In this document: positions 36,953 to 62,443 of the stretch, piece by piece
How positions within the stretch are numbered: position 1 is the first letter of the stretch
How the letters are laid out: each line of letters opens with the position of its first letter
Source of the DNA: Mesocentrotus franciscanus
Taxonomy: Eukaryota > Echinodermata > Echinoidea > Camarodonta > Strongylocentrotidae
Assembly: GCA_037976565.1 (NCBI GenBank)
Contig: CP137674.1
Coordinates: 2,724,762 to 2,788,761 of the forward strand
Reading direction: 5' to 3'
DNA length: 64,000 bases
The notes under the pieces: model-generated
The model's input: the letters and a program-made list of their open reading frames with translations, nothing else
Told to the model about the DNA's origin: nothing
Database searches by the model: none
Program-made: the position numbers and the translations under genes

Positions 36953-37984
36953 ATGGCGACAACAAAAAGTGACGAAGAAAACGGAACGTCAGTCTACAAT
37001 GAAACCACGAGTGCTCCCACCAAGGTACCAGTTCTACCCCGGTGTAGGTGGCCTGCGCCACATCCAGACTGGGATGTAGCCTTTGCGGCTTGGGGAAGCA
37101 CCTGGACAGCACATATTATCATCTTCGTCATAGCTTATGCCATTGTTGCCATCTATACTTGCTCCGTGCTGTGTTATCTTGTGTGGAAGCGTTGTAGCTC
37201 TGTGCGTGGGACCCATGATGGTGCTCTTACAAAGCGGCTGACTAACCTCAGGATTGCTCTGCATTCTCTGGTGTTCGTTGCGTGCTCGGCCAGGACAATG
37301 TCTCTTGGAATCGACCCTTACGGAACGAGGAAGATTCTGAAATGTCCAAGTGGTGTGGTTCTTTGGTCACTGGGATGGCCATCCTTAGTGTCATCTTTCA
37401 GTATCCTGTTAATGCTACTCTTGGAGACAACTCGTTTGTCATTGGCCCCACCTCGAATCCAACGTCCCTCCGTCCTAGGAAGCATCATTGCCGTCAGCCT
37501 GGGGTATGTCCTCTTTTCCGATTTCTTGGTGGCTTACGACAACTCCACCAAGTATGCGGTCAAGGTTTGCCAGATGCTTTTCATCATCTGGGGAGTGTTG
37601 CTATTCTTCGGGTTCGTCTACGTCTGGTGGAAGATACACAGTAACTTGACGGCTAGTTCACGGGGTCAGACGCAAACATCCTCCCAGCGAGATAACAGCG
37701 ACAATTCTAAGATGCGTAAACTCAACACCATCATCTTCGTGAGTGCAGCTATTGGTATCTGTCTCACTGTCACCAATCTCTACTGGGTATCCGCCACGCT
37801 TGATAAGTCTTATCGACATGAAGCTCTCAGACCATGGCCGTGGCTGGTATTCAGCACTTGTCAGAGGATCTTAGAAGTCAGTATCTCTATCATGATCCTG
37901 TTGACAGTGTCGAAGAGTGGTCAGAGCAGTAAAGTCGACGATAATGCCAATTCTAACAACACTATCCCTACTGCCACAGCTTAA
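36953..37984 (+). CDS. Seven-transmembrane protein, PRRT3/PRRT4-like membrane domain
   Basis: A 343-codon frame with an unbroken coding signal and base composition clearly richer in GC than its surroundings. The N-terminus (1-50) is polar with NGT and NET sequons, then a PDWDVAFAAWGSTW motif. Seven hydrophobic segments follow at about 53-78, 100-120, 133-158, 173-194, 203-226, 257-281 and 296-320. The loop ISLGIDPYG-like region (about 115-126) and the SSFSILLMLLLETTRLSLAPP region (about 147-167) resemble the conserved C-terminal membrane domain of vertebrate PRRT3/PRRT4. The long Pro-rich ectodomain of those proteins is absent. The C-terminus (321-343) is a Ser/Asn-rich tail. An intron acceptor abuts the start codon, so the coding region may be one exon of a spliced transcript. 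Function in this animal is unknown, and the family assignment is from motif memory and could be wrong. The gene itself is solid. Confidence 0.85.
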   Translation: MATTKSDEENGTSVYNETTSAPTKVPVLPRCRWPAPHPDWDVAFAAWGSTWTAHIIIFVIAYAIVAIYTCSVLCYLVWKRCSSVRGTHDGALTKRLTNLRIALHSLVFVACSARTMSLGIDPYGTRKILKCPSGVVLWSLGWPSLVSSFSILLMLLLETTRLSLAPPRIQRPSVLGSIIAVSLGYVLFSDFLVAYDNSTKYAVKVCQMLFIIWGVLLFFGFVYVWWKIHSNLTASSRGQTQTSSQRDNSDNSKMRKLNTIIFVSAAIGICLTVTNLYWVSATLDKSYRHEALRPWPWLVFSTCQRILEVSISIMILLTVSKSGQSSKVDDNANSNNTIPTATA

Positions 37985-38807: not shown

Positions 38808-38956
38808 TTAACATCTTATCTGTAGATATCTGATGTAGTCTGGGTTGAACGTGGGTCTCATACGATGAAAGCATTCCGCACCAGCCTTGTCGCAAGCACA
38901 CATAGCCATAGCACAGTCTGTGTACTTGTAATCTGAGTCATAGCTGCTTGCGTCCA
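38808..38956 (-). CDS. PLA2 gene A, exon 4
   Basis: Acceptor CTTTGTTTAG; 149 nt ending in TAA (38810-38808). It encodes [15 protein letters not shown], the second disulphide-rich helix of secreted PLA2, with a C-terminal Cys just before the stop. Confidence 0.9.
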
Positions 38957-41900
38957 CTAAACAAAGATAGAATAAATGGACATGATTAACTCGTACTTCT
39001 GTGACAAGTGATTAGTACGTAGGAATACTTCGTGTATCTGCAATTTATATTGATTTTATTTTATTTTATTTACCAAATATAAAAACATATAAATAACAAC
39101 ATACATGATAACATGAGAAAATAACATTGGATGGATCGCCATGCTCAGCTGTGCCAGTGCAGCACAGCCGTTCTACCGAGGGGTCCAGTTTACAATACAA
39201 AACAAACTAGGGAAAATGATATATCACAAATTAAAATTCTTAACATATTGGTATAATATTAAAAAACCAACATCGTTTACACAGTATCATGCCCCCACCC
39301 ACTCAAGAGAAAAACTCAGGACCCCCACCCACCATATTATTGATCAATATTAAAAGTAGAAAGCTAAATAATATGAGATAATCGGCCAAACATGTTTTAC
39401 TTCTTAGTTATCTATAAGGTGTATATCGATTGATTTTGTTAGAAATCAAAGGATAGAGTTTTATCTCTCTATTTGATTGTTGAAATTCAAACCTGACCAG
39501 ATATCGTCATTATTTCGAAGCCATATTTTATACATATCTTGCCAAAACTGCTGCATCTTCAGTTATTATATCATATTATATAGTTTATATTATATTCAAT
39601 ATGAAAATTAAAATTAATATGAAATAAAGAATTATATTAATGTGTATATTACCTCAAAATAACATGATTTCCTTTTTGTTAAAGTGTTATTTATCGATAT
39701 ATCACTGGGCATTCCGGGCGATAGGGTTTAAAAAGTTATAATGAAATTGTCCAACCTGACCCTTAATGCATTGATTGTTTTATTTAAAATTAGAGCTATT
39801 CATTTTGTGGGCATGAGTTTGATAACTATTTGCCACATATTCATAGCTATAATTCAAGGCATGGAGAACGTTAAGGAATGAAAGCTACGGGTCATATCAT
39901 GCAAGTTTGAATACGGTTATAATTCAAGTGATGTATTTTTACAAATTATATTATAAATCCATTAATTGAGGAGGATATATAACAATTTTCCACAAACCAT
40001 TAAATCACATAACCCATTATTGACTTCGATTAATTGTTATAATTTATTGCTGCCAATGCCAATTAGATACATATATTATAATACTGACATACGCGAATTT
40101 GAAATCATAAAGCACCAATAATGAATAAACCAGTAATTGTAATGCAATTTGATATTCTGACCTCGTTTTTGTTCACCGTTCCGAGTCTTCAATTAATTGT
40201 ATCACAGTTGTTTTCATTTAAGAGCCAAATGGCATTTTTTTTAAAATCTCACCATCTCTAGGAGAAATAGATACCCTATATTTTTTTGTATTTTTCATCA
40301 TTCATCATTGATATGATAAGATGAGATAGCAATAAACAGCTGTTGTGTTCAATCAAAAGAGTGTCCCATTATTGTTTTAGAGAAGAATATGTATAAGAAT
40401 GTATATAAAGCTTACAGCAGGTAATCTCCGAACGGTATGTCCCACATTGGAAGGCTTTGTAGTTGTAGGGAATGATGTAAGCATGGTTGTAACCTCGGCA
40501 CATGTCGCTTGTTTGTACGACTGTATAGCAGTCATCGTGGACTTCACAACACCTGATAAAAACATAATCAATACATTAATTAATCCACTCGTCTGCTTCT
40601 CCTGGGTATATTTTATACTTGACAATACAGCACTTCTGTTCAGCGTGCACCATAAGCCTAGCATCCAATGATGAAAGCATCAAACTACAATGTTACAGTC
40701 ATTATCAACAAACCTTTATTTTAGAAACATCCATACGGACTATACTGATATGTGTTGATATTACAGAGGTTCTGGTAAGACAGGTTTATGTTCTCATGCC
40801 ACAGGCAACCCTATATCCGTAAGATATGATGACACATTAATGTCGATTTAAAGGAATCATTTTTCCTATCATAAATTAAGCAATGAAAAGAATGACAATT
40901 TTTAAAAGTTGGGTAAATTTAGTTGGGTAACAGATAGTTGGTTAAAATGTTGGCCCAAAGTTGTGTTACTCTTTCCCAAATCTGGTCAAGATGAATTGAC
41001 CACCTTGTGTAAAACCAAGTCTTATTCTTACCAACCCTTTGTGGGCATATTTGTTTTGGGCAAACTTTACTCATACACTTGGGTAAATCTATTAACATGC
41101 TATTTATTATTGAGTAAACTCTACCACACTTGTGTAAATCATTACCTGAATTTGTGCACAAAAATTATTTTAACAAATATGAAGGTAAGGTTTGCCCAAT
41201 CGATGTGCATAATTGCATCAAACGATTTGGTAAGTTTTCCACCAGAAGTAATGATAATAAAATAACCCAAAGTTATGTAACTCTTGTCCAAATCTGCTGG
41301 TAGTTCGACCGATTTATGTTAAAGTAACACCTACCCAAACGCTGGTCACATTGTCACCAATATTTGGTGTACTTTTTCAGCAAGTTATACTCAACTGTTG
41401 GTAACATTTTAACAATGTGCACTCTTAACATGCTGGGTAAATTTAGTTGGGTAACAGATTTGTTTTTCCTTTTCAGAGGTTATTTATTCAATAATTTTAC
41501 AATTTAACAACATTAACAACATTTAAAGAGTTTGCAAAATGAATATAAACACACGCAACAGCAATAATAACATTAAGAGGAGCTAAATACGTAATTCATA
41601 ATCATACACTTTACATTGAGAAAAAAGGGTAAAATATCATAATCAGTTAAAATCCCGGAGTAAAACGTTGAAAAGCATTTGATAATGTGACTTTATCTAA
41701 ATGCAGTTCGTTTTCAAAAAATGTGCCATATCGAAAAGCTATTGCACGTTTTTCCTCGAAAAAAAATTAACATATACATTTTATATGTTGCGTATGGTGC
41801 GTTGTGCGTATTGTGTGTAATGACTATATTTATATCTTTAGTATTTGAGCAATTAGAGTCTATACCAAGAATCAAATGTTCATTTAATATCAGTGATTGT

Positions 41901-43505
41901 TTGAAGTTACAGTGAATAAATGCAACAATGCGTTTCCAGAACAATGTTACTTTGGGGCATTCTAACAAAACATGAACAAACGATTCTGTTGTCTTGCAAA
42001 ATTTTCGCTTACAATTTTCCATTTACATAAATTATACATGAAGGGTAGTATACGGGGAAGTGCTTTAACATTCGATTGTTACAGATAGTTGGTTCAAAAT
42101 ATACCCAAAGTTGTGTTATTTTTGAACAAATCTGGTGAAGATGTACTGACTTAAAGGTATTGTATCCCTTTTTCAGCCAACATCAAATTCTATTGAACTT
42201 TGCAGGAATTATGAATATGTCACGTATGTCCTATCTGTGAAATGTAGACATTAGCAGTGTCTTAGTATTCAAATTATGCAAGGAAACCCATTTACATTGT
42301 AGACTTCACTGACTGACTCCTTTTTTTCTTTGTTAATAACATACAAAAAATGAGCTGTAAATGTACATGAGCATCCGTCTACAAACTCTACATCAATAAC
42401 CCACTTCTTGTAATGGCCAAAATTAAACTGATTGAATCTTTGCGCAGCACAAAACATATGACCATTCGGTACAAGGGTCTGAAAATCAGTCTATTTACTA
42501 AAGTGATTGCAACCACTAAAGTCGATTAGACAACGAATGGTCGTTATTTACTCACAAAAATTCATTTTCAAGCCCTTTCTTTTTGAAGGAAGTTCTAAAT
42601 TAGTATTATCTTTCAAATGCCATTGGAATTCAACCTATTCATTTTTTTTGGCCTGCAAATGGGACATAGTCCCTTTAAAGTTTAAACAAAAAGAAGCAAG
42701 GTGTGGATCTTTGACTTACCTATCTGTATCATCCAGAGGAACACCATCACCACCAAAGCCACAATAACAGCCATAGCCGATATAATCAAGACTAACTTCT
42801 ATTACACTCTTTCCAAGTAGACACTTTAACATCATTCCAAACTGACCCAAGTGTGTTGTATGAGGAATACACCTGCAACCTGGAAGATAAAAGTGTATTT
42901 CTGAACTAATAATTGGTCTTATTTACTAATTGGTCATGTCGGTTTAGACTAATTTCTGTCTTTGCATTTTCATCTTAATTCCTCTACAAGGTTATCACCT
43001 CTTATTTCCACTGGCGGACTTATGTTTTTAAGGGAGGGGGCACGGTCGACCCTAGCGCCCTTTTTGAAACCCAAGTGGCAAACGTTTAGTACACAAGCGA
43101 AATAATCCCTTTTACTGATCCCTTTTATTTATTTTATTTGTTTAATTTTGGCTTGTCAATTAATTTTATGAGTGAAAGAAAAGGACCGAATATTCCTAAT
43201 GACCAGGGAGGGGGACCAGAAAATCCTGTTGATATTTTTCAGGAATATTGTGCCCTCTCTGCTATTTGTGCTTTCTGAATATTGAATAAAATTGTTGTGA
43301 CGCTCCGACTCCTAATCTCCAACTCCTGCGTCTCAACACATCATATTACTTTATTACGTAGTCATATTCTCATGTAGCATGCACATTTTATTATTATTTT
43401 TTTATTAATACGTTTTGAATGGATTGAAAAATAAGTAAGAGATAGGATGGACTTACCTGTAAGAAGAACAGAGAAGCAAGCGATGTAGGCAAGGAGTTTC
43501 ATCAT
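38808..43505 (-). CDS. Secreted phospholipase A2, gene A (four coding exons)
   Basis: Exons on the minus strand: 43505-43457, 42879-42720, 40552-40416 and 38956-38808, totalling 495 nt (164 residues plus stop) with intron phases 1, 2 and 1. Exon 1 is a signal peptide (MMKLLAYIACFSVLLTG). Exon 2 has the calcium-binding loop YGCYCGFGG, exon 3 the active site CCEVHDDCY with the His-Asp pair, and exon 4 the [16 protein letters not shown] helix. These are the diagnostic elements of the secreted 14-kDa PLA2 family (group I/II type), which hydrolyses the sn-2 ester of phospholipids with calcium. All key residues are present, so it should be active and secreted. Intron 2 (2.2 kb) is swollen by an L1-like fragment and a MITE. 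It is the most diverged of the three genes and has a single active-site exon. A digestive, immune or venom role cannot be told apart here. Confidence 0.92.
39050..39345 (-). mobile_element. Possible retroelement tail inside PLA2 A intron 3
   Basis: On the minus strand the segment ends GGTAAATAAAATAAAATAAAA, a tandem tail of the kind left by LINEs or SINEs. The body is not recognisable. Confidence 0.3.
40416..40552 (-). CDS. PLA2 gene A, exon 3 (catalytic)
   Basis: Acceptor TTTTTATCAG, donor GTAAGC; 137 nt. It encodes CCEVHDDCY with catalytic His and calcium-binding Asp, then SDMCRG and the YNY segment. There is no duplicated copy of the catalytic segment upstream, unlike genes B and C. Confidence 0.9.
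40908..41459. repeat. TGGGTAA-rich repeat in PLA2 A intron 2
   Basis: TAAATTTAGTTGGGTAACAG occurs at about 40914 and again at about 41437, roughly 521 bp apart, with further TTGGGTAA/CCCAAAG variants between. The second copy is interrupted at 41459 by an L1-like fragment and resumes at about 42078 (AGTTGGTTCAAAAT). The whole looks like a decayed tandem or nested element. Confidence 0.6.
41460..42077 (-). pseudogene. L1-like LINE 3' fragment
   Basis: A 102-codon minus-strand frame begins near 42022. It contains CKRKFCKTTESFVHVLLECP and FWKRIVAFI, which match the C-terminal Cys/His knuckle region of L1/Tx1-type LINE proteins. It splits a TGGGTAA repeat copy, with ACAGAT present on both sides (41454-41459 and about 42082-42087) as a probable short target duplication. 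Confidence 0.6.
42150..42680. mobile_element. MITE family 3, copy 2, in PLA2 A intron 2
   Basis: It aligns with 26314-26854 in the same orientation and keeps the right end GGGACATAGTCCCTTTAAAG. It ends about 40 bp from the exon 2 donor of gene A. Confidence 0.85.
42720..42879 (-). CDS. PLA2 gene A, exon 2 (calcium loop)
   Basis: Acceptor TTATCTTCCAG, donor GTAAGT; 160 nt, the same length as in genes B and C. It encodes LGQFGMMLKC and the loop YGCYCGFGGDG. A second AG 7 nt downstream (TTGCAG) would shift the frame, so the upstream acceptor is the one that fits. Confidence 0.9.
43457..43505 (-). CDS. PLA2 gene A, exon 1 (signal peptide)
   Basis: ATG at 43505 with a second ATG codon immediately after; 49 nt to donor GTAAGT. 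It encodes a hydrophobic leader (KLLAYIACFSVLL). The first ATG is chosen because it is upstream and in frame. Confidence 0.8.
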
Positions 43506-44827: not shown

Positions 44828-45280
44828 TTATAAAACACAATTATAGACTATTACCCTGCAGAGCATGGACAGGGAACAAGTATTACCTTGGACAAGTATC
44901 CCCACGTCACTCAATTAAGTTCGATTTTGATACGCATACTTTTGATTAATGCATTTGTTTAATGGACAATCATAGAATCCATAATATTTGGCGATAGATC
45001 ACATGATTACACAACGATAATGTAACATGAATTCCCAATCACAAACACAACTGCACATACATACGCACACAATCGTATATGAAGTTAATTCGAATAAACA
45101 CTCTTTGAGTTACTCAAGATCACAAGCAGGGCAAGTACATCTAGTGATAAGGAGAATGTACGTTATTTTAAAGTCCTGAATTTGAAACAAATATTAATTT
45201 TCTATTGTAGTTGAAAAGAAATGGACGAGGACAATCAGTATTAATCGATTGTTTGTTGTTTCTTCTATTTCCTTATAGTA

Positions 45281-46609
45281 TTAGGATTTCCCGGCAAAAT
45301 TCGCGAGTTTCTCATTAAAATTAATTTGTCTTGCATTCAAATTCGACGGTTTTAGTGCTGTCAGGTATATATCGGGTTTATATTCCCTTTTCTAGTTTTC
45401 AAATCTATGAAGTTTTCGTTAGAATCTATGTATTTTTCATTCAAATTAATGAACAATGTGCTTCTTTCGCTATTTGGTCATTCGATTTGGCGCAACACGA
45501 TTTTTTGACATCGCGACGGTGTACTTCTAGCATTCTAATTCATTGTAGCATTCAAATTAGCACTCTGTGCACTTAAATTGATGGTCAATATACGTTTATC
45601 GTTTATTACACACTTTTTATAGCTCATTCTTTTTCTTTCAAGATTGTTTTTTTTTTCATGTGTATTTCATCATATTTTATTTTCTTGCATTTTTACACTT
45701 ATACTTATTAGATTAATCTGATATTCATCAGCATTTAAGTTTGATTGTTAAAACAAAACGACTTGCATCTACGGCCTTGATGGTCTCAATATGTTTGTAA
45801 ATGTTCATGTAAGGACGTTGTTTGTCTTGTGTTTCATCACAAATTTATCATAATTTCATCATAATTTCATTATGGAGGAAGGGTACAATATTGTGACTGG
45901 GGTAGGGACTAGAGTCACACAATTTGAGCATGATTCATTATTTAGCCAAGTCTTTAGCCATCGATCTGCTGGCGGGCAAGGCATCGGGGGATGTAGGTCT
46001 CAAATGGCGAAGTCACAAGTAAACTATGAAACTCTTTTAGGGTGTGCTGGGTGTAAGAGACGATGTGAATTACTTTTGTAAAATTCCAAGTCTGTAGTAA
46101 AAAGGGGCGATTGAGGGTGCCCCCACCTTTCCCGGGTATATGAACATGTCCGTGCAGAAATGCCATATCCCTTGATTTCGCCCCTTCTTTATTTAATGTC
46201 TGACTACACCCATATGCATTGTCCTGAAAATGAATAAATGGAATAACAGAATAGACCTCAATGGCAAATCATGCATTTTAATTGCATTATTTTAAAACTG
46301 TAAACGTGTGTTGCATTTCGTCCCCCTAACATTCCTAACTTGAATAAACACATTTCGAATACAAATGACAAGTGTTAATTTAAATGATAAAAATGACGCC
46401 TCGACAAGTGACGATTAATTTGAATGCTAATTGAGCAGATTCTAAATTAAATGACAGATCTATGAAACCCTTCGACCAAAATCCTAAATTAAATACAAAA
46501 ACGGGAAAATTGAATGATAGTTGGCATGGCAAAGTCGATCTGCGCTAACTTAAATGCAAAGTAAATGAATTCGAATGACAAACTCGCGAATTTCGCCGGG
46601 AAATCCTAA
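45281..46609. mobile_element. TIR transposon (TTAGGATTTCCCGG), copy in unit B
   Basis: The left end TTAGGATTTCCCGGCAAAAT and the right end, complement of TTAGGATTTCCCGGCGAAAT, define a 1.33-kb element. The TIR continues as TCGCGAGTTTSTCATT. TAGTA/AAGTA flanks it as a likely target duplication. Towards both ends the word CATTCAAAT (or complement ATTTGAATG) recurs every 30-50 bp. A 69-codon frame (45872-46081) ending in a CAGCKRRC segment is broken by a stop in the copy at 55678-57015. The element ends 36 bp downstream of the PLA2 B stop codon. Confidence 0.85.
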
Positions 46610-46645: not shown

Positions 46646-46794
46646 TTAGCAGCTATCCTTGTCATATCTCTTATAATCTTCGTTAAAGGTTGGTCTGTAA
46701 CTATGGAAGCATTCTGAGCCGGCCTTGTCGCAAGCACACATAGCCATAGCACAGTCTGTGTACGCGTAATCTGAGTCATAGCTGCTTGCACCAG
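46646..46794 (-). CDS. PLA2 gene B, exon 4
   Basis: Acceptor CTTTTTTCAG; 149 nt to TAA at 46648-46646. It encodes [15 protein letters not shown] and a C-terminal DKDSC. Confidence 0.9.
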
Positions 46795-49700
46795 CTGAAA
46801 AAAGATAGATAGAAAGAAAAAGATTGCAATTTATAGGAGATATTGGAATACAGGTACCACTCAATTTACTATCCACAACATTCTAAGATTAGTATCATCA
46901 AATAATACACTCTTGCATTATCTTAGATTAACCAAGAGAAATTATATGTGGACTTTGGCATTAAATATATCTCAAAGTAAATCCATGACATTATATCTTT
47001 CTTTAACATATGTGGGTCTAAATAAAAAATGATAGACCACTTTTCTTGCTAAGTAATGATGCAATTATCATGTAGCAATTCAGTATTTGAATGATAATCC
47101 GCATGTTATTTAGTTTGATGTATTGATTGCTTCTTCTTCTTCTTCTTCTGTTGAAGACATCCTTGTCCTGTCGTGAAACCATCCGAGTTAAGTTATTAAT
47201 AAATAGATGTCGTACTATTATTAATTTTGAAATAAGTCATCTGTAGCATAATATAAGTATGATTAAGTTGATTTATTTATTTATCTGTAACATACTGTAC
47301 TTTTTTTGAATAATATTGTGTAATCGTGGTGCTGTCGTCCCGGCTTTTATTTCGTGTAAGGACAGCGCTTCACTCAATGGCTGCTGGGACAACAGCACCA
47401 CTGCGCCTAGAAACAAAGTATTAGGCGCGTTATAAATGTGATCTATTATTATCTATTATCATTATTAAGAATAAAGAAATGAAAGATATTAGTGGACTTG
47501 GATATCAATTAAGTATAACAACTTTTTCTTTAGACTCATTAGCTTGTGTATCCAAAAGTGCATACAAAAGCCATTTATGTATATCATTGAGCTGTTCGTA
47601 ATTATTTGTATCATAGTCTATTTAACTTAAATAAACTAAAATATAAAATGTGTCATCCCTGAATTAATTTTATATTCCACTTTCCTTGTTTTCTTTTTAA
47701 TAAAAGTTTCCAACTTAACAGCTTTTTCAATGATAGTGGCAAACATCAAGTCTGTTTTGTTTAAGGTGAATCGTGCACGTTCATTTGCTAACGCTCTATG
47801 TTACATGTGAATATTAAAAGTAAAAATATATAACACAAACTTACAGCAAACGACCTGTGCACCATTGGTTCCACATTGCAATGTATTGTAGTTATACACA
47901 ATGGTGTAGGCTTGGTTGCTATCCCGGCACATATCACTGGTTTGTACGACTGTGTAGCATTCATCGTGGGTCTGACAACAACTGACATAGCAACAATTCA
48001 TTATATCAATGATCTGTACTTTATTGTAGCAGTCATCATGTGTTTGACAACGCCTTAAATAAGAACAATTCATTCTATCACATGAAGAATTCGGGGCCTT
48101 AGTCCACTCTGGTTTCAGAACAGCGCTTACTTTGTGTAGCTGGCTTGAATTCTTAAAGCAAACTCATCAGATTTCATGAACGCCAGAGTTGCGGAACATT
48201 GTGAGCCTTTCCGCTCAATAAAACAACCGATTAATTTCAATTCAGTTACAGTCTTGGCACTGTTCTGATGCTCAATAAGGTTCGCATTCGATTAGACCTT
48301 TCTCCGAAGGGAAGGCCCACAGCGACTAACAATTCTAATCTCGACATGACTGTTCGACTATTCCCAATCTAAATCAGAGTTTTAAATAAAAACAGACAGA
48401 TGATCCTTGAAAGCTGAGTTTATTTATTAGGTTTAGGATTTCACAATGTGATGAGAAGTCCTGAAAATAACTATTGGATTTAAAAGAGGATAGATGAGTA
48501 AAGAGAGAGGAAGCGAGAAATAGTCTTTTTCGTTTTATCCTACTGGGTAATACTGAGAGAGAAGTAGAAAAATGAGGGTTATCCTTTTATGTGTGGGTGA
48601 AGTCCTGAAAAGGACTAGTAAACCTGATCATAAATACATAAAGAGAGAGAGAGAGAGATAGAGAGAGAGAGATAGAGAGAGATAGTGAGAGAGAAAAGTG
48701 AATGTTCGTCATCCAATTTAGTTAGATCTTCACTTTTAAAGCTCCAAAACTTGGTCGTAGTGAGATGTCTTCTGACTTACCTATCTGTATCGTCCTGAGG
48801 AACACCCTGACCTCCGAGGCCACAGTAACAACCGTATCCATTGTAATCCAGACCCGCCTCTACTGTACTAATGTCTAGAAGACATGAAATCATTAGTCCA
48901 AACTGACCAACATTTCTTGTCTGGGGCATCGTCATACAACCTGCAAACAACCGAAACATTTATAATCATTTCTTCTTTTTCATCGTCAACTAATTTATCT
49001 TCAATTTTGTTCTTCTTCTGCATGTGAGTATGAGTGTTTGTTCATCTTGAAACGTTATTTGAATTGATTCCAATTTATTTCAATCGATTTTGTTGATTCT
49101 GATTTTTTTTTAGATTCTGATTGTTTTTTTTTGTTTTTTTTCTCATTTACCTGAATGCTAAGAAAACATGTGTATGCGTGTAAAAAGCAACCTGGTGACT
49201 GACGACATTAAGTTCTCTCCGAGGGAGTTGGTAATGAGGATTAATGCCTTACCAAAGGGCACTAGCGCATCGACTTGGTTTCGAACCCACCCGAGACCTC
49301 CCATTTACGCGACCACTGCTCTACCACTGAACCATTGCGCCTCCTCTTTTGATTCTTCAAGTAAGTAATACTTTAAAATAAAAATAAAAACCTTTAACAC
49401 AAAGGGGAAATAAGTGTAACTTGGCAGGAGAAGCCAAGGAGATCATTTTCAATGTTGTAAAATTCAATAAACCAAGGCTTATCCTCAAGACTATTATGTA
49501 ATAACAATACCCTTCTCATCGTCACCGATCATGTGTAGCAAATGATTCTCAGAGATTCACTGACTGTTCAAAGCAATCATTATGATCATATGAGAATATT
49601 AAGATGAAAATTGTGTGTATACTTTATATAAAAACACAATATATGCATTTTAGTAATGGATTACCTTGCCTATTAATCTACAAGATTCCCCAGCAATGTT

Positions 49701-52998: not shown

Positions 52999-53514
52999 AT
53001 AAGCTGTGCTTAATAGCAAAACTAAATGCAATTCAGATTTAATCTCACTTATTCAGTGAAAACTTGAACATGAAGGACAAAGTACTGATAATTATATAAG
53101 CCCAGGGGAGTGTTTCACAAAGACTAAGATCGACTTTAAGTTGGACTTAACTATGGCAGGCCGTTCATGCCACTGGTTGCTATCACCATTGGTCTCTCAA
53201 TTATGATCTTTAGATAATATTTTTTCCTTCAATAATGAACTATCAAAAAAAGTTAAATTCTGTAGATTTGTGACCACGATTTGTATGTAACTTGAGAGAC
53301 CGATGCCAGTAAATGGTGAGAGCAAACAGTGGCATGAACGGCCTGCCATAGTTAAGTCCAACTTAAAGTCGATCTTAGCTTTGTATAACACTCCCCTGGG
53401 CTTATACCAATTATCAGTACTTTGTCCTTCATGTTCAAGTTTTCACTGAATGAGTGAGATAAAATCTGAATTGCATTTAGTTTGGCTATTAAGCACAGCT
53501 TATTTCCAATCACA
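52999..53514. repeat. ~515-bp inverted repeat centred on a MITE
   Basis: About 105 bp to the left of the MITE (from AATAAGCTGTGCTTAATAGC) is repeated as its complement to the right, with few mismatches. These outer arms join the MITE's own TIRs to form one long hairpin. Confidence 0.85.
53103..53398. mobile_element. MITE family 1, copy 2
   Basis: The ends CAGGGGAGTGTTTCACAAAG and its near complement are the TIRs, followed inward by ATCGACTTTAAGTTGGAC and GCAGGCCGTTCATGCCA. It is a shorter internal variant of 268-929. Confidence 0.9.
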
Positions 53515-53751
53515 CACAGCCGCATACAATTATATACGCACACATTTATTTGAAGTTAATTCAAATAAACACTCTTTGAGTTACTCAAGATCACAAGCAA
53601 GTTAAGTACACCTAGTGATCAGGAGAATGTACGTTATTTTAAGGTCCGGAATTTGAAACAAATATTCATTTTCTATTGTAGTTGAAAAGAAATGGACGAG
53701 GACAATCAGTATTAATCGATTGTTTTTTGTTTCTTCTATTTCCTTATAGTA

Positions 53752-54346
53752 TTAGGATTTCCCGGCCAAATTCGCGAGTTTGTCATTTAAATTAATTTGT
53801 CTTGCATTCAAATTCGACGGTTTTAGTGCTGTCAGGTATATATCGGGTTTATATTACTTTTTTAGTTTTCAAATCTATGAAGTTTTCGTTAGAATCTACG
53901 TATGTTTCATTCAAATTAATGAACAATGTGCTTCTTTCGCTATTTGGTCATTCGATTTGGCGCAACACGATTTTCTGACATCGCGACGGTGTACTTCTAG
54001 CATTCTAATTCATTTGTAGCATTCAAATTAGCACTCTGTGCACTTAAATTGATGGTCAATATACGTTTATCGTTTATTACACACTTTTTATAGCTCATTC
54101 TTTTTCTTTCAAGATTGTTTTTTTTTTCATGTGTATTTCATCATATTTTATTTTTTTGCATTTACACACTTATACTTATTAGATTTATATGATATTCATC
54201 AGCATTTAAGTTTAATTGTTAAGAAAAAAACGACTTGCATCTACGGCTTTGATGGTCTCAATATGTTTGTAAATTTTCATGTAAGGAAGTTGTTTGTCTT
54301 GTGTTTCATCATAAATTCATCATAATTTCATCATAATTTCATTATG
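53752..54346. mobile_element. Left part of the TTAGGATTTCCC transposon, truncated
   Basis: Matches 45281-45872 (and 55678-56270) and then breaks at ATTATGG, where sequence homologous to 43731 onward begins. This marks a duplication junction inside the transposon. Homology also extends left to about 53515, matching 45045-45280. Confidence 0.85.
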
Positions 54347-54757
54347 GAAACACCTGTTACCTATTATATAAATATCAACGTATATCTTGATTTGGGATAC
54401 TGTGTAAGGAAATATTTTGTTAACAAATACAGAACATTTCAGGGTTTAGATGAATATAGATCTTATCAGTTAATTACTCATTAATCATATATTCAAAAGC
54501 ATATCCATCATGACAAAGTTCATTGACACCAAACTTCACGATGGTATGATCACAGATGCATGAGAGCCAATCAAGAATCATCTTTCATCTAAACATGTGG
54601 TTTATAGTTAAACTGGGTAGGAAACAGATATAAATGTATATATAATCAGCAAATTGAAAATAATATATCAAGGATCATTGCAGAAACTTCTGCGGGGACA
54701 AGGCTTCCTTTTAGAATGTACATTTTTTTCTAACTCATCCTATTTTCTTTCTCACTC

Positions 54758-55030: not shown

Positions 55031-55677
55031 ATCATTTTATTATTCTTTCCTTCATATTATTCTTTCATTCATATGAGTATGATCTTCAGGATCTTGCCTT
55101 AGTCACACCATTAATCATAAAGCATATTTTAAATGAAATTCAAATGACAATGGATAAGATTTTTATCCCTCGTCTATTTTATTCCAACTTTATCTACAGC
55201 ATTTAAAGTGACCTAATACTTGGGTTATAGAACACAATTATAGACTATTACCCTGCAGAGCATGGACAGGGAACAAGTATTACCTTGGACAAGTATCCCC
55301 ACGTCACTCAATTAAGTTCGATTTTGATACGTATACTTTTGATTAATGCATTTGTTTGATGGACAATCATAGAATCCATAATATTTGGCGATAGATCACA
55401 TGATTACACAACGATAATGTAACATGAATTCCCAATCACAAACACAACTGCACATACATACGCACACAATTGTATATGAAGTTAATTCGAATAAACACTC
55501 TTTGAGTTACTCAAGATCACAAGCAGGACAAGTACACCTAGTGATCAGGAGAATGTACGTTATTTTAAAGTCCTAAATTTGAAACAAATATTCATTTTCT
55601 ATTGTAGTTGAAAAGAAATGGACGAGGACAATCAGTATTAATCGATTGTTTTTTGTTTCTTCTATTTCCTTATAGTA

Positions 55678-57015
55678 TTAGGATTTCCCGGCCAAATTCG
55701 CGAGTTTGTCATTTAAATTAATTTGTCTTGCATTCAAATTCGACGGTTTTAGTGCTGTCAGGTATATATCGGGTTTATATTCCTTTTTTTAGTTTTTAAA
55801 TCTATGAAGTTTTCGTTAGAATCTACGTATGTTTCATTCAAATTAATGAACAATGTGCTTCTTTCGCTATTTGGTCATTCGATTTGGCGCAACACGATTT
55901 TCTGACATCGCGACGATGTACTTTTAGCATTCTAATTCATTTGTAGCATTCAAATTAGCACTCTGTGCACTTAAATTGATGGTCGATATACATTTCTCGT
56001 TTATTACACGCTTTTTATAGCTCATTCTTTTTCTTTCAAGATTGTTTTTTTCATGTGTATTTCATCATATTTTATTTTCTTGCATTTATACACTTATACT
56101 TATTAGATTTATCTGATATTCATCAGCATTTAAGTTTGATTGTTAAGAAAAAAACGACTTGCATCTACGGCCTTGATGGTCTCAATATGTTTGTAAATTT
56201 TCATGTAAGGACGTTGTTTGTTTTGTGTTTCATCATAAATTTATCATAATTTCATCATAATTTCATTATGGAGGAAGGGTACAATATTGTGACTGGGGTA
56301 GGGACTAGAGTCACACAATTTGAGCATGATTCATTATTTAGCCAAGTCTTTAGCCATCGATCTGCTGGCGGGCAAGGCATCGGGGGACGTAGGTCTGCAA
56401 TGGCGAAGTGACAAGTAAACTATAAAACTCTTTTAGAAAAACAGAGGGGTGTGCTGGGTGTAAGAGACGATGTGAATTACTTTTGTAAAATTCCAAGTCT
56501 GTAGTAAAAAGGGGCGATTGAGGGTGCCCCCACCTTTCCCGGGTATATGAACATGTCCGTGCAGAAATGCCATATCCCTTGATTTCGCCCCTTCTTTATT
56601 TAATGTCTGACTACACCCATATGCATTGTCCTGAAAATGAATAAATGAAATAACAGAATAGACCTCAATGGCAAATCATGCATTTTAATTGCATTATTTT
56701 AAAACTGTAAACGTGTGTTGCATTTCGTCCCCCTAACATTCCTAACTTGAATAAACACATTTCGAATACAAATGACAAGTGTTAATTTAAATGATAAAAA
56801 TGACGCCTCGACAAGTGACGATTAATTTGAATGCTAATTGAGCAGATTCTAAATTAAATGACAGATCTATGAAACCCTTCGACCAAAATCCTAAATTAAA
56901 TACAAAAACGGGAAAATTGAATGATAGTTGGCATGGCAAAGCCGATCTGCGCTAACTTAAATGCAAAGTAAATGAATTCGAATGACAAACTCGCGAATTT
57001 CGACGGGAAATCCTA
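55678..57015. mobile_element. TIR transposon (TTAGGATTTCCCGG), copy in unit C
   Basis: Same element as 45281-46609, with intact TAGTA on both flanks (55673-55677 and 57016-57020). It ends 39 bp downstream of the PLA2 C stop codon. Confidence 0.85.
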
Positions 57016-57054: not shown

Positions 57055-57203
57055 TTAGCAGCTATCCTTGTCGTAAAACTTATAATCGTCGTTAAAGGAT
57101 CGTCTGTAGCTTTGGAAGCATTCTGAGCCGGCCTTGTCGCAAGCACACATAGCCATAGCACAGTCTGTGTACGCGTAATCTGAGTCATAGCTGCTTGCAC
57201 CAG
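57055..57203 (-). CDS. PLA2 gene C, exon 4
   Basis: 149 nt to TAA at 57057-57055. Compared with gene B it changes HSYRPTF to QSYRRSF and NEDYKRY to NDDYKFY. Confidence 0.9.
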
Positions 57204-59497
57204 CTGAAAAAAAGATAGAAAGAAAGAAAAAGATTGCAATTTATAGGAGATATTGGAATACAGGTACCACTCAATTTACTATCCACAACATTCTAAGATT
57301 AGTTTTCATGAGTTATATCCTTCAAATAATACACTCTTGCATTATCTGAGATTAACCAATAGAAATTATATGTGGACTTTGGCATTAAATATATCTCAAA
57401 GTAAATCCATGGCATTATATCTTTCTTTAACATATGTGGGTCTAAATAAAAAATGATAGACCACTTTTCTTGCTAAGTAATGATGCAATTATCATGTAGC
57501 AATTCAGTATTTGAATGATAATCCGCATGTTATTTAGTTTGATGTATTGATTGCTTTCTAGTCCAGCCAATTCTATCAAAATCTTCTGTTGAAGACATCC
57601 TTGTCCTTTCGTGAGACCATCCGAGTTAAGTTATTAATAAATAGATGTCGTACTACTATTAATTATGAAATAAGTCATCTGTAGCATAATATAAGTTAGA
57701 TTAAGTTGATTGATTCATTTATCTGTAACATACTGTAATTATTTTGAATAATATTGTGTAATCGTGGTGCTGTCGTCCCGGTTTTTATTTCGTGTAAGGA
57801 CAGCGCTTCACTCAATGGCTGCTGGGACAACAGCACCACTGCGCCTAGAAACAAAGTATTAGGCGCGTTATAAATGTGATCTATTATTATCTATTATCAT
57901 TATTAAGAATAAAGAAATGAAAGATATTAGTGGACTTGGATATCAATTAAGTATAACAACTTTTTCTTTAGACTCATTAGCTTGTGTATCCAAAAGTGCA
58001 TACAAAAGCCATTTATGTATATCATTGAGCTGTTCGTAATTATTTGTATCATAGTCTATTTAACTTAAATAAACTAAAATATAAAATGTGTCATCCCTGA
58101 ATTAATTTTATATTCCACTTTCCTTGTTTTCTTTTTAATAAAAGTTTCCAACTTAACAGCTTTTTTCAATGATAGTGGCAAACATCAAGTCTGTTTTGTT
58201 TAAGGTGAATCGTGCACGTTCATTTGCTAACGCTCTATGTTACATGTGAATATTAAAAGTAAAAATATATAACACAAACTTACAGCAAACGACCTGTGCA
58301 CCATTGGTTCCACATTGCAATGTATTGTAGTTATACACAATGGTGTAGGCTTGGTTGCTATCCCGGCACATATCACTGGTTTGTACGACTCCGTAGCAGT
58401 CATCGTGGGTCTGACAACAACTGACATAGCAACAATTCATTATATCAATGATCTGTACTTCATTGTAGCAGTCATCATGTGTTTGACAACGCCTTAAATA
58501 AGAACAATTCATTCTATCACATGAAGAATTCGGGGCCTTAGACCACTCTGGTTTCAGAACAGCGCTTACTTTGTGTAGCTGGCTTGAATTCTTAAAGCAA
58601 ACTCATCAGATTTCATGAACGCCAGAGTTGCGGAACATTGTGAGCCTTTCCGCTCAATAAAACAACCGATTAATTTCAATTCAGTTACAGTCTTGGCACT
58701 GTTCTGATGCTCAATAAGGTTCGCATTCGATTAGACCTTTCTCCGAATGGAAGGCCCACAGCACCTAACAATTCTAATCTCGACATGACTGTTCGACTAT
58801 TCCCAATCTATATCAGAGTTTAAAATAAGAACAGACAGATGATCCATGAAAGCTGAGTTTATTTATTAGGTTTAGGATTTCACAATGTGATGAGAAGTCT
58901 TGAATATAACTATTGGATTTAAAAGAGGATAGCTGAGTAAAGAGAGAGGAAGCGAGAAATAGAGACTGGGTAATACTGAGAGAGAAGTAGAAAAATGAGG
59001 GTTATACTTTCGTGTGTGGGTGAAGTCCTGAAAAGGACTAGTAAACCTGATAATAAATACAGAGAGAGAGAGAGAGAGAGATAGAGAGAGAAAGTGAGAG
59101 AGAAAAGTGAATGTACGTCATCCAATTTAGTTAGATCTTCACTTTAAAGCTCCAAAACCTGGTCGTAGTTAGTCTAGTTCTGGACCCTTTTTATTGATTT
59201 TTTTATTTGCCGACTATACGCGTTAAGCCGAGTGATTGCGCCACCACTCGGCTTAACGCGTATAGTCGGCGAATAAAAAAATCAATAAAAAGGGTCCAGA
59301 ACTAGACTAGGTCGTAGTGAGATGTCGTCTGACTTACCTATCTGTATCGTCCAGAGTAGTACCCTGACCTCCTAAGCCACAGTAACAACCGTATCCATTG
59401 TAATCCAGACCCGCCTCTACTGTACTAATGTCTAGAAGACATGAAATCATTAGTCCAAACTGACCAACATTTCTTGTCTGGGGCATCGCCATACAAC
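57055..59497 (-). CDS. Secreted phospholipase A2, gene C (exons 2-4 seen, exon 1 not in window)
   Basis: Exons 59497-59338, 58420-58284 (or 58492-58284) and 57203-57055 match gene B in length, phase and splice signals. The calcium loop [11 protein letters not shown], active site CCQTHDDCY and [16 protein letters not shown] are intact. As in B, the catalytic segment is duplicated. Coding differences from B include VPQ to TTL after the calcium loop, ECYT to DCYG at the active site, and several changes in the last 20 residues. No exon 1 equivalent of 52279-52234 occurs before the window ends. It may lie beyond 64000, or the duplication may have left it out. Intron 2 carries a 141-bp palindrome and intron 1 a 2.1-kb foldback element, both absent from B. 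Confidence 0.88.
58284..58492 (-). CDS. PLA2 gene C, exon 3 with two alternative acceptors
   Basis: Short form 58420-58284 (137 nt, [12 protein letters not shown]); long form 58492-58284 (209 nt) adds the [14 protein letters not shown] copy. The duplicated intron-end/exon-start unit is 72 bp, as in gene B, so the duplication predates the B/C split. Confidence 0.85.
59059..59103. repeat. (GA)n microsatellite in PLA2 C intron 2
   Basis: Homologous to 48640-48694. Confidence 0.85.
59169..59309. mobile_element. 141-bp near-perfect palindrome, inserted MITE with 8-bp duplication
   Basis: GGTCGTAG flanks it on both sides (59161-59168 and 59310-59317), while gene B has a single GGTCGTAG at the same place (near 48754). 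The arms (TAGTCTAGTTCTGGACCC, then CGACTATACGCGTTAAGCCG) are complementary over about 63 bp with a ~14-nt loop (TGATTGCGCCACCA). Its near end is 28 nt past the exon 2 donor of gene C. Confidence 0.95.
59338..59497 (-). CDS. PLA2 gene C, exon 2 (calcium loop)
   Basis: 160 nt between TTGTTTGCAG and GTAAGT. Identical to gene B except for the TTL triplet after GGQG, one Thr to Ala change near the start, and a silent Leu codon. Confidence 0.92.
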
Positions 59498-60336: not shown

Positions 60337-62443
60337 TATGGAAGCTTAAAAGTGCCACCCAGATGTTGAGATAATTATCTTCGGAAGTCGACATCTTGCT
60401 AGCGAAAAGATCAGATGACGAGATCTCGGACCTCATCATGTCGACATCCTGTAGAAGAGATGATCAGATGACAAGATCCCGGATCTCATCATGTCGACAT
60501 CTTTAGAAGAGATGATCAGATGACAAGATCCCGGATCTCATCATGTCGACATCCTGTAGAAGAGATGATCAGATGACAAGATCCTGGATCTCAACATGTC
60601 GACATCTTTTAGAATAGATGATCAGATGACAAGATCCCGGATCTCATCATGTCGACATCCTGTAGAAGAGATGATCAGATGACAAGATCCTGGATCTCAT
60701 CATGTCGACATCTTTAGAATAGATGATCAGATGACAAGATCCCGGATCTCATCATGTCGACATCCTTAAGAAGAGATGATCAGAACTGATGACGAAATCC
60801 TTGACTAATCCCCCTAAACTAATTTTCTTACACCATGCATTGCGAACTTAATGCGGCGCTAAATTATGGAACGCCAGGCTGGACACAATTCGTCACCGAC
60901 GGTACATGGTACGTACGCCAATTGATGTGTCCAGATAGCGGAAAATAGTGTGATTATGTTGAAAGAATAAAAGAAGAAGGAGGAGGAGGAGGAAGAGGAG
61001 AAGAAGAAAAAGAACAATAAAAGAACAAGACGAACAAGAGGAAGCAGGCGCGGTTCTACGGGTGGGCTATGAGGACTCAAGCCCCCAAAAAAAAGACCAC
61101 AAATCCTATATATGTCGTTAAGTGCTCTTGAAAACTTTAACGATTCAAATTCGAAAATTTTCTCGCTTAGTTGTTACATGTTCCCGCAAAATAATATCTA
61201 AACTTACAATACATTAATGCTCTAATGATGTGCGACTATAGTAAGCCAATGATTTCCCTGTACGTACAATACAGTAAACTACTGTGCACACACCCTGTTA
61301 AATATAATTGAGTGTCAGCAATACATAAGGAGCGAGAAACAATTTTTTTTTTCAAAGTAGCCCTCCCCCTCCCCCGTCCCCGAAAATCAAAATAGGCCTA
61401 CCAATGTAAAATAGAAGAATAAACCCTGAATTTTTCAATTTTGGTCAAAAGCGCTCTGAATCTTTGCCATTCTTCAGTAGTTTCCTGTTGAGAAATGGAA
61501 ATTCTCACGGCTCGGTCGCTATTATGCTCTCTGACCTACTAGTAGAGTGAAGTGCCCCGGGGGGCATGTCCCATTGAGACCTGTAGGCCTACAGCATGCG
61601 CGAAAATCACTTTCTGAAAAGCACCCTAAACGGGATATCAGGAGCGGTAGTTTTGTTACCCTAAATGGGAAAATCACTTTAAATCACCCTATCAGGATCA
61701 GTAGTTTTCATACCCTAAAACCGGGACCCTAATCGGGAAACATGTTTTTAATATTCAATTTCATACCCTTGACGGATAGTTTATCTTGTGTGTTATTTAG
61801 TCAAGCAATTGCTCGTTCGCTACGCTTTCTCGCGTATGAATAATTGGAACGCCTGGAGAGGGTAACAACACAGACCCCTTCCTCATTGCCAGTCTTGTCC
61901 CCTTATCATGGAACTAAATCACAGGTCCGCAGATCTTGTCATCTGATCATCTCTTCAAAAGGATGTCGACATGATGAGATCCAGGATCTTGTTATCTGAT
62001 CATCTCTTCTAAAGATGTCGACATGATGAGATCCGGGATCTCGTCATCTGATCATTTCTTCTACAGGATGTCGACATGATGAGATCCGGGATCTTGTCAT
62101 CTGATCATCTCTTCTAAATGATGTCGACACGATGAGATCCGGGATCTTGTCATCTGATCATCTCTTCTAAATGATGTCGACATGATGAGATCCGTGATCT
62201 TGTCATCTGATCATCTCTTCTAAAAGATGTCGACATGATGAGATCCGGGATCTTGTCATCTGATCATTTCTTCTACAGGATGTCGACATGATGAGATCCG
62301 GGATCTTGTCATCTGATCATCTCTTCTACAGGATGTCGACATGATGAGATCCGAGATCTCGTCATCTGATCTTTTCGCTAGCAAGATGTCGACTTCCGAA
62401 GATAATTATCTCAACATCTGGGTGGCACTTTTAAGCTTCCATA
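60337..62443. mobile_element. Foldback transposon, 2.1 kb, arms built of ~55-bp subrepeats
   Basis: The element starts TATGGAAGCTTAAAAGTGCC and ends with the complement; TGCGA flanks both sides (60332-60336 and 62444-62448). Unit B has the empty site (ACTATGCGAAGTCAG at 49792-49806). Each arm has ~60 bp of unique end sequence, then about seven to eight tandem copies of a ~55-bp unit with GATGATCAGATGACAAGATC and CATCATGTCGACATC. The copies at the right (61926-62380) are inverted relative to the left (60400-60790). The centre (60790-61925) has no transposase frame. The architecture is that of foldback (FB/TU-type) elements. Confidence 0.93.

What the first reader, a model, noticed from the sequence alone, without database searches (positions are those of the whole stretch)
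47845..48053. In-frame 72-bp duplication of the intron end plus the catalytic exon start in PLA2 gene B
GAATGAATTGTTCTTATTTAAG followed by a CGTTGTCAAACACATGATGA segment is repeated 72 bp downstream as AATGAATTGTTGCTATGTCAG followed by TTGTTGTCAGACCCACGATG. The duplication carries a complete splice acceptor and the HD active-site segment, so the gene can make a normal PLA2 (downstream acceptor) or a form with 24 extra residues and two active-site motifs. The first copy has Arg where the first Cys of the CC pair should be. Gene A has only one copy. I know of no described PLA2 with this layout, but I could not search.
Basis: partly seen in the sequence, partly recalled or inferred. Interest (0 to 1): 0.85.

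Follow-up and report, generated by a model that had tools for sequence, protein, structure and literature searches.

The report
Duplicated splice acceptor in urchin phospholipases
Two neighbouring sea-urchin phospholipase A2 genes carry a small old copy of the start of their catalytic exon just upstream of the real one, most likely a leftover of a local duplication rather than a working two-active-site enzyme.

Summary
The 72-bp in-frame duplication is real (59 of 78 positions match at lag 72; score 30.5 against at most 12.5 in 200 shuffles). It is not unique to one gene: the tandem neighbour at 58.4 kb carries it too. Two other neighbours, at 40.5 kb and just outside the window, have a single copy. 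The closest proteins found are from sea urchins. The single-copy neighbour D matches the downstream copy almost perfectly (21/21 intron end, 46/48 exon start) and the upstream copy poorly (17/21, 35/48). So the downstream acceptor is taken as ancestral; it gives a complete secreted PLA2. The upstream copy has diverged and lost a conserved cysteine. TGATA stands at 72-bp intervals around the unit, as slippage or unequal exchange would leave. None of 121 related proteins read has two HDxCY motifs about 24 residues apart (at least 470 matches exist). The long form with 24 extra residues stays possible: the two acceptors score alike, the stretch is open, and the copy's catalytic motif kept its residues mostly through silent changes (weak evidence). 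No RNA data were available. Verdict: a real but modest oddity.

The parts
48003..48080 (-). gene B, upstream copy (copy 1) of the repeat: intron end, acceptor 1 (AAG, exon would start at 48053), exon start with R-C-Q-T-H-D-D-C-Y
   Evidence: 59/78 identity at lag 72; codon table
47931..48008 (-). gene B, downstream copy (copy 2): acceptor 2 (CAG, exon starts at 47981), [10 protein letters not shown]
   Evidence: 21/21 and 46/48 identity to single-copy gene D
47845..47981 (-). gene B catalytic exon 3 as read from acceptor 2
   Evidence: donor GTAAGT after 47845, phase fits exons 2 and 4
47982..48053 (-). gene B 72-nt optional stretch between the two acceptors, open, 24 codons
48781..48940 (-). 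gene B exon 2 (calcium loop YGCYCGLGG)
46646..46794 (-). gene B exon 4 with stop codon
52232..52279 (-). probable signal-peptide exon 1 of gene B
   Evidence: tblastn with the S. purpuratus leader, E 2.5e-6; assignment to B by position
58442..58519 (-). gene A, copy 1 of the same repeat (acceptor 1 exon start 58492)
58370..58447 (-). gene A, copy 2 (acceptor 2 exon start 58420)
59338..59497 (-). gene A exon 2
58284..58420 (-). gene A exon 3 from acceptor 2
57055..57203 (-). gene A exon 4 with stop codon; a leader exon that fits A by position lies just beyond the window
40416..40552 (-). gene C exon 3, single copy, single acceptor
42720..42879 (-). gene C exon 2
38808..38956 (-). gene C exon 4 with stop codon
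43455..43502 (-). probable signal-peptide exon 1 of gene C
   Evidence: tblastn with S. purpuratus leaders

Best explanation
Genes A and B are ordinary secreted phospholipase A2 genes in a sea-urchin tandem array. In an ancestor of both, a 72-bp piece reaching from 27 bp before the acceptor into the catalytic exon was duplicated head to tail, probably by slippage or unequal exchange between two short TGATA repeats. The downstream copy kept the working acceptor and makes the normal enzyme. The upstream copy is now mostly a decaying remnant at the end of the intron, which at most gives a minor long isoform. Shown: the repeat, its presence in A and B and absence in C and D, the near-identity of copy 2 to D, the TGATA spacing, the complete active-site motifs of the short form. 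Inferred: the duplication mechanism, the decay, and which acceptor is used.
For: Gene D, the next tandem gene, has one acceptor and presumably uses it; its last 21 intron bases are identical to copy 2 (21/21) and its exon start is 46/48 to B copy 2, against 17/21 and 35/48 for B copy 1. B and D otherwise align at 77-84% outside exon 3 (pieces partly hold exons), so 21/21 suggests that copy 2 was kept as a splice site. Gene C is also single (12/21 and 39/48 to B copy 2). TGATA stands at 48080, 48008 and 47936 in B and at the matching places in A. Short-form B scores 80.5 bits in one stretch for PF00068; the long form scores 78 bits in two stretches. The Cys column that copy 1 has lost is invariant in the alignment of 9. 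Of 121 relatives read, 112 have one motif; 8 of the other 9 have motifs 90-173 residues apart (doubled domains) and one has a chance second match 10 residues on; none has about 24.
Against: Acceptor 1 is not visibly dead: with rough recalled weights it scores 3.15 (4.09 with the first exon base) against 2.77 (1.83) for acceptor 2. The first exon base of copy 2 is T in A and B where D and C have G, which by those weights weakens acceptor 2 and puts Ser for the usual Arg. Copy 1 has no stop. In its 10-codon motif it differs from D by 4 silent and 1 changed codon (P of that many silent 0.0026), over 17 codons by 5 and 5 (P 0.020); with an ancestor polarised by gene C, 3 and 1 (P 0.015) and 4 and 5 (P 0.07). 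Copy 1 differs from D by 25% (52/69 alike), more than a neutral branch since the A/B-D split should give, so it is older than that split or came from elsewhere.
Confidence: 0.7

Rival explanations
1. Both acceptors are used (or acceptor 1 mainly), so A and B make a long PLA2 with 24 extra residues, four extra cysteines and two catalytic motifs, besides or instead of the normal enzyme.
For: Stretch open and in frame in both genes; acceptors score alike, and the first exon base of acceptor 2 is worsened by recalled weights; silent-change excess in the copy 1 motif; the extra cysteines are even in number, 19 against 15.
Against: No relative with this layout among the 121 read. The insertion falls inside the conserved catalytic stretch next to an invariant Cys pair, and copy 1 lacks the first Cys. 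An open copy 1 is not telling: neutral simulation over its 17 exon codons met a stop in only 37-38% of runs.
Confidence: 0.15
2. Copy 1 did not arise from copy 2 by slippage but was carried in, with its intron flank, from another PLA2 paralogue by ectopic exchange, and is the stump of that gene's exon.
For: 25% divergence and silent-change excess; B window 48630-48006, which carries copy 1, has no aligned counterpart in gene D.
Against: At protein level no other fetched gene resembles copy 1 more than the A/B/D exon does: of 23 loci, 8 hold the catalytic exon of A-D, 7 hold that of other genes, and 8 showed no such exon, so the check is partial. Copy 1 shares the intron end of A/B/D (17/21), less that of C (12/21). 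TGATA boundaries fit local duplication. A whole-genome search with 48014-48630 did not complete.
Confidence: 0.12
3. Assembly artefact, or A and B are two haplotypes placed side by side.
For: A and B blocks are about 95% identical, within what sea-urchin heterozygosity could give (recalled).
Against: The repeat has the same bounds in both loci with different substitutions, and copies 1 and 2 differ at 19 of 78 positions, which a local assembly error does not make. The A and B blocks have unequal spacing and unmatched sequence between them. Even as alleles, both would carry it. Read depth was not available.
Confidence: 0.03

Closest known systems
Secreted phospholipase A2, Pfam PF00068, echinoderm AP-PLA2-I-like genes
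   Same: Pfam score 80.5 (B short) and 86.4 (C) bits against cut-off 32.1; up to 71% identity to an S. purpuratus AP-PLA2-I; tandem clustering as reported for 7 of 8 crown-of-thorns sPLA2 genes on one scaffold (passages of PMC10448888)
   Different: Second, diverged acceptor and exon start inside the intron of A and B; Ser for Arg before the Cys pair
Long-chain three-finger toxins with a shifted intron 2 acceptor
   Same: A changed splice boundary adds a short cysteine-bearing segment (passages of PMC2711939)
   Different: There one inserted base shifts the site; here a 72-bp duplication doubles it, and use is unproven
Alternative splice sites born from tandem duplication of a boundary (recalled class; paper searches listed no paper on it)
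   Same: Head-to-tail duplication that copies an acceptor
   Different: The copy is old and diverged; use unknown

Membership tests
Secreted PLA2 (PF00068) | profile match above the curated cut-off | tested here: met
   80.5 (B short), 78 in two stretches (B long), 86.4 (C) against 32.1 bits
Secreted PLA2 (PF00068) | calcium loop YGCYCGxGG, CCxxHDxCY, CxCD (motif roles recalled) | tested here: met
   read in A, B, C and largely invariant in the alignment of 9; met from acceptor 2, copy 1 has R-C instead of C-C
Secreted PLA2 (PF00068) | signal peptide | tested here: inconclusive
   leader exons found by similarity for B and C, and outside the window for A and D by position; no signal predictor was run
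Secreted PLA2 (PF00068) | phospholipase activity | not testable with these tools
   needs an assay
Alternative 3' splice site pair | two AG acceptors with in-frame spacing | tested here: met
   48053 and 47981, 72 nt apart
Alternative 3' splice site pair | both sites of usable strength | tested here: inconclusive
   alike with rough recalled weights
Alternative 3' splice site pair | both used in transcripts | not testable with these tools
   no RNA reads on hand
Two-domain (doubled) PLA2 | two complete PLA2 domains | tested here: not met
   only the exon start is repeated; the 8 doubled proteins read have motifs 90-173 apart

The most novel reading that the evidence does not exclude
A and B splice to both acceptors, and the long product is a folded secreted PLA2 variant with two catalytic helix starts, kept by selection since before the A/B split.
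Probability: 0.1. Interest if true: 0.55.

Novelty: new member of a known kind. Interest (0 to 1): 0.25.

Why it matters
If only the downstream acceptor is used, this is a clear snapshot of how a duplicated splice boundary decays beside its working twin. If both are used, it would show how one duplication can add a cysteine-rich segment to an enzyme's catalytic region, and it is easy to test by RNA-seq.

Tried and rejected
Rfam and tRNA scans of the window, and blastn against phages, gave nothing. A protein search and a PDB search with the 69-residue exon alone found nothing; for the protein search the candidate-length limit probably explains it. The short form did match solved PLA2 structures (4bp2, E 2.4e-21). 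A mutually exclusive mini-exon (an internal GTACAG donor in copy 1) was rejected because it would leave an intron under 40 bp (read by eye). Positive selection between A and B: dN/dS 1.2, not above chance (P 0.51), although coding sites differ more than the sampled introns, 4.3% against 2.1% (one-sided P 0.014; introns from two stretches, 1450 bases, where conversion may lower the figure). Structure prediction was not run: the spliced protein is not a letter-for-letter translation of the window. Paper searches answered: (19, 57 and 58 listed none); no listed title or abstract start described a PLA2 with this layout. Of papers I saw only passages of PMC2711939 and PMC10448888.

Full report
What is there. 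On the minus strand the window holds three tandem secreted PLA2 genes: C (exons 2-4 at 42879-42720, 40552-40416, 38956-38808), B (48940-48781, exon 3 ending at 47845, 46794-46646) and A (59497-59338, exon 3 ending at 58284, 57203-57055). A fourth, D, lies just beyond the window (L023; exon 3 starts at C9:2792228). In the scripts these exons are numbered 3-5; with the leader exon I call them exons 2-4. The window is C9:2724762-2788761 of a 773-Mb genome in 21 contigs. The best protein matches are sea urchins: S. purpuratus 71%, L. pictus 66%, Diadema 52%. No species name was shown, so 'sea urchin' is inferred.

The duplication. In B, 48080-48003 and 48008-47931 match at 59 of 78 positions at lag 72; 200 dinucleotide shuffles of 421 bases, each searched over lags 30-199, never exceeded 12.5 against 30.5. 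Gene A has the same structure at 58519-58370 (60 of 78). Between A and B the 72-nt stretch differs at one base and exon 3 at three.

Which copy is original. D has one acceptor. Against D, copy 2 of B matches 21/21 intron bases and 46/48 exon bases, copy 2 of A 21/21 and 44/48; copy 1 of B 17/21 and 35/48, copy 1 of A 17/21 and 36/48. Outside exon 3, B and D align in pieces of 77-84% identity, some of which hold exons. So copy 2 looks like the conserved, working boundary. TGATA occurs at each 72-bp step (48080, 48008, 47936), so one slippage or unequal exchange between two such repeats explains the unit; this step is inferred.

Consequences. From acceptor 2 the protein has the calcium loop, the CC-xx-HD-x-CY stretch and CACD, and scores 80.5 bits for PF00068. 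The residue before the Cys pair is Ser in A and B, but Arg in C, D and P0001-P0006, and Thr in P0007. From acceptor 1, 24 residues are inserted (171 against 147; 19 cysteines against 15), the first motif lacking its first Cys.

Is copy 1 used? Against: the ancestral site is downstream; 0 of 121 relatives read have two motifs about 24 residues apart. One search had 470 matches and listed 120; with one more that makes 121, and the rest were not read. Whether those proteins rest on transcripts was not checked. For: acceptor scores are alike, with weights that I recalled, not trained on urchins; copy 1 is open; its 10-codon motif differs from D by 4 silent and 1 changed codon (P 0.0026), and over 17 codons by 5 and 5 (P 0.020). 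With an ancestor polarised by C these are 3 and 1 (P 0.015) and 4 and 5 (P 0.07). The motif boundary was chosen after looking, and some silent changes may lie on the copy 2 side, so I treat this as weak.

Age. Copy 1 is 25% from D (52/69 alike). If the duplication arose after the A/B-D split, a neutral copy should show about half of the 16-23% distance seen between B and D. So it is older, with loss in D, whose intron has nothing aligned to 48630-48006, or it evolved fast, or it came from another paralogue. Among the 23 loci fetched, 15 showed a catalytic exon and none resembles copy 1 more closely than the A/B/D exon does, at protein level. The whole-genome search for the intron flank did not complete.

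Limits. No RNA evidence was available. A and B are about 95% alike and might in principle be haplotypes placed in tandem; depth was not available. The finding is ordinary in kind: a duplicated splice boundary in a tandem gene family.

Noticed in passing
window 59161-59309 (minus strand, intron 2 of gene A): A near-perfect foldback insert (judged by eye) absent from gene B and flanked by the direct repeat ACTACGACC, like a small inverted-repeat transposon.
   Followed up: partly
window 57055-59497 against 46646-48940: Coding sites of A and B differ more (4.3%) than the sampled intron stretches (2.1%), dN/dS about 1.2; reminiscent of venom PLA2 genes (recalled), but not significant as positive selection.
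   Followed up: partly
window 45031-45876, 53502-54348, 55428-56272: Three copies of a 0.85-kb unit, 94-95% identical, around the PLA2 genes.
   Followed up: no
window 60387-62393: Inverted and tandem repeat block, matches 90-94% identical.
   Followed up: no
window 36953-37984 (+): Intact 343-codon open frame with hydrophobic stretches (by eye), no Pfam family above its cut-off.
   Followed up: no
G000 contigs C9, C10, C11, C13: 18 PF00068 matches in the genome, on four contigs, i.e. a larger PLA2 family.
   Followed up: no
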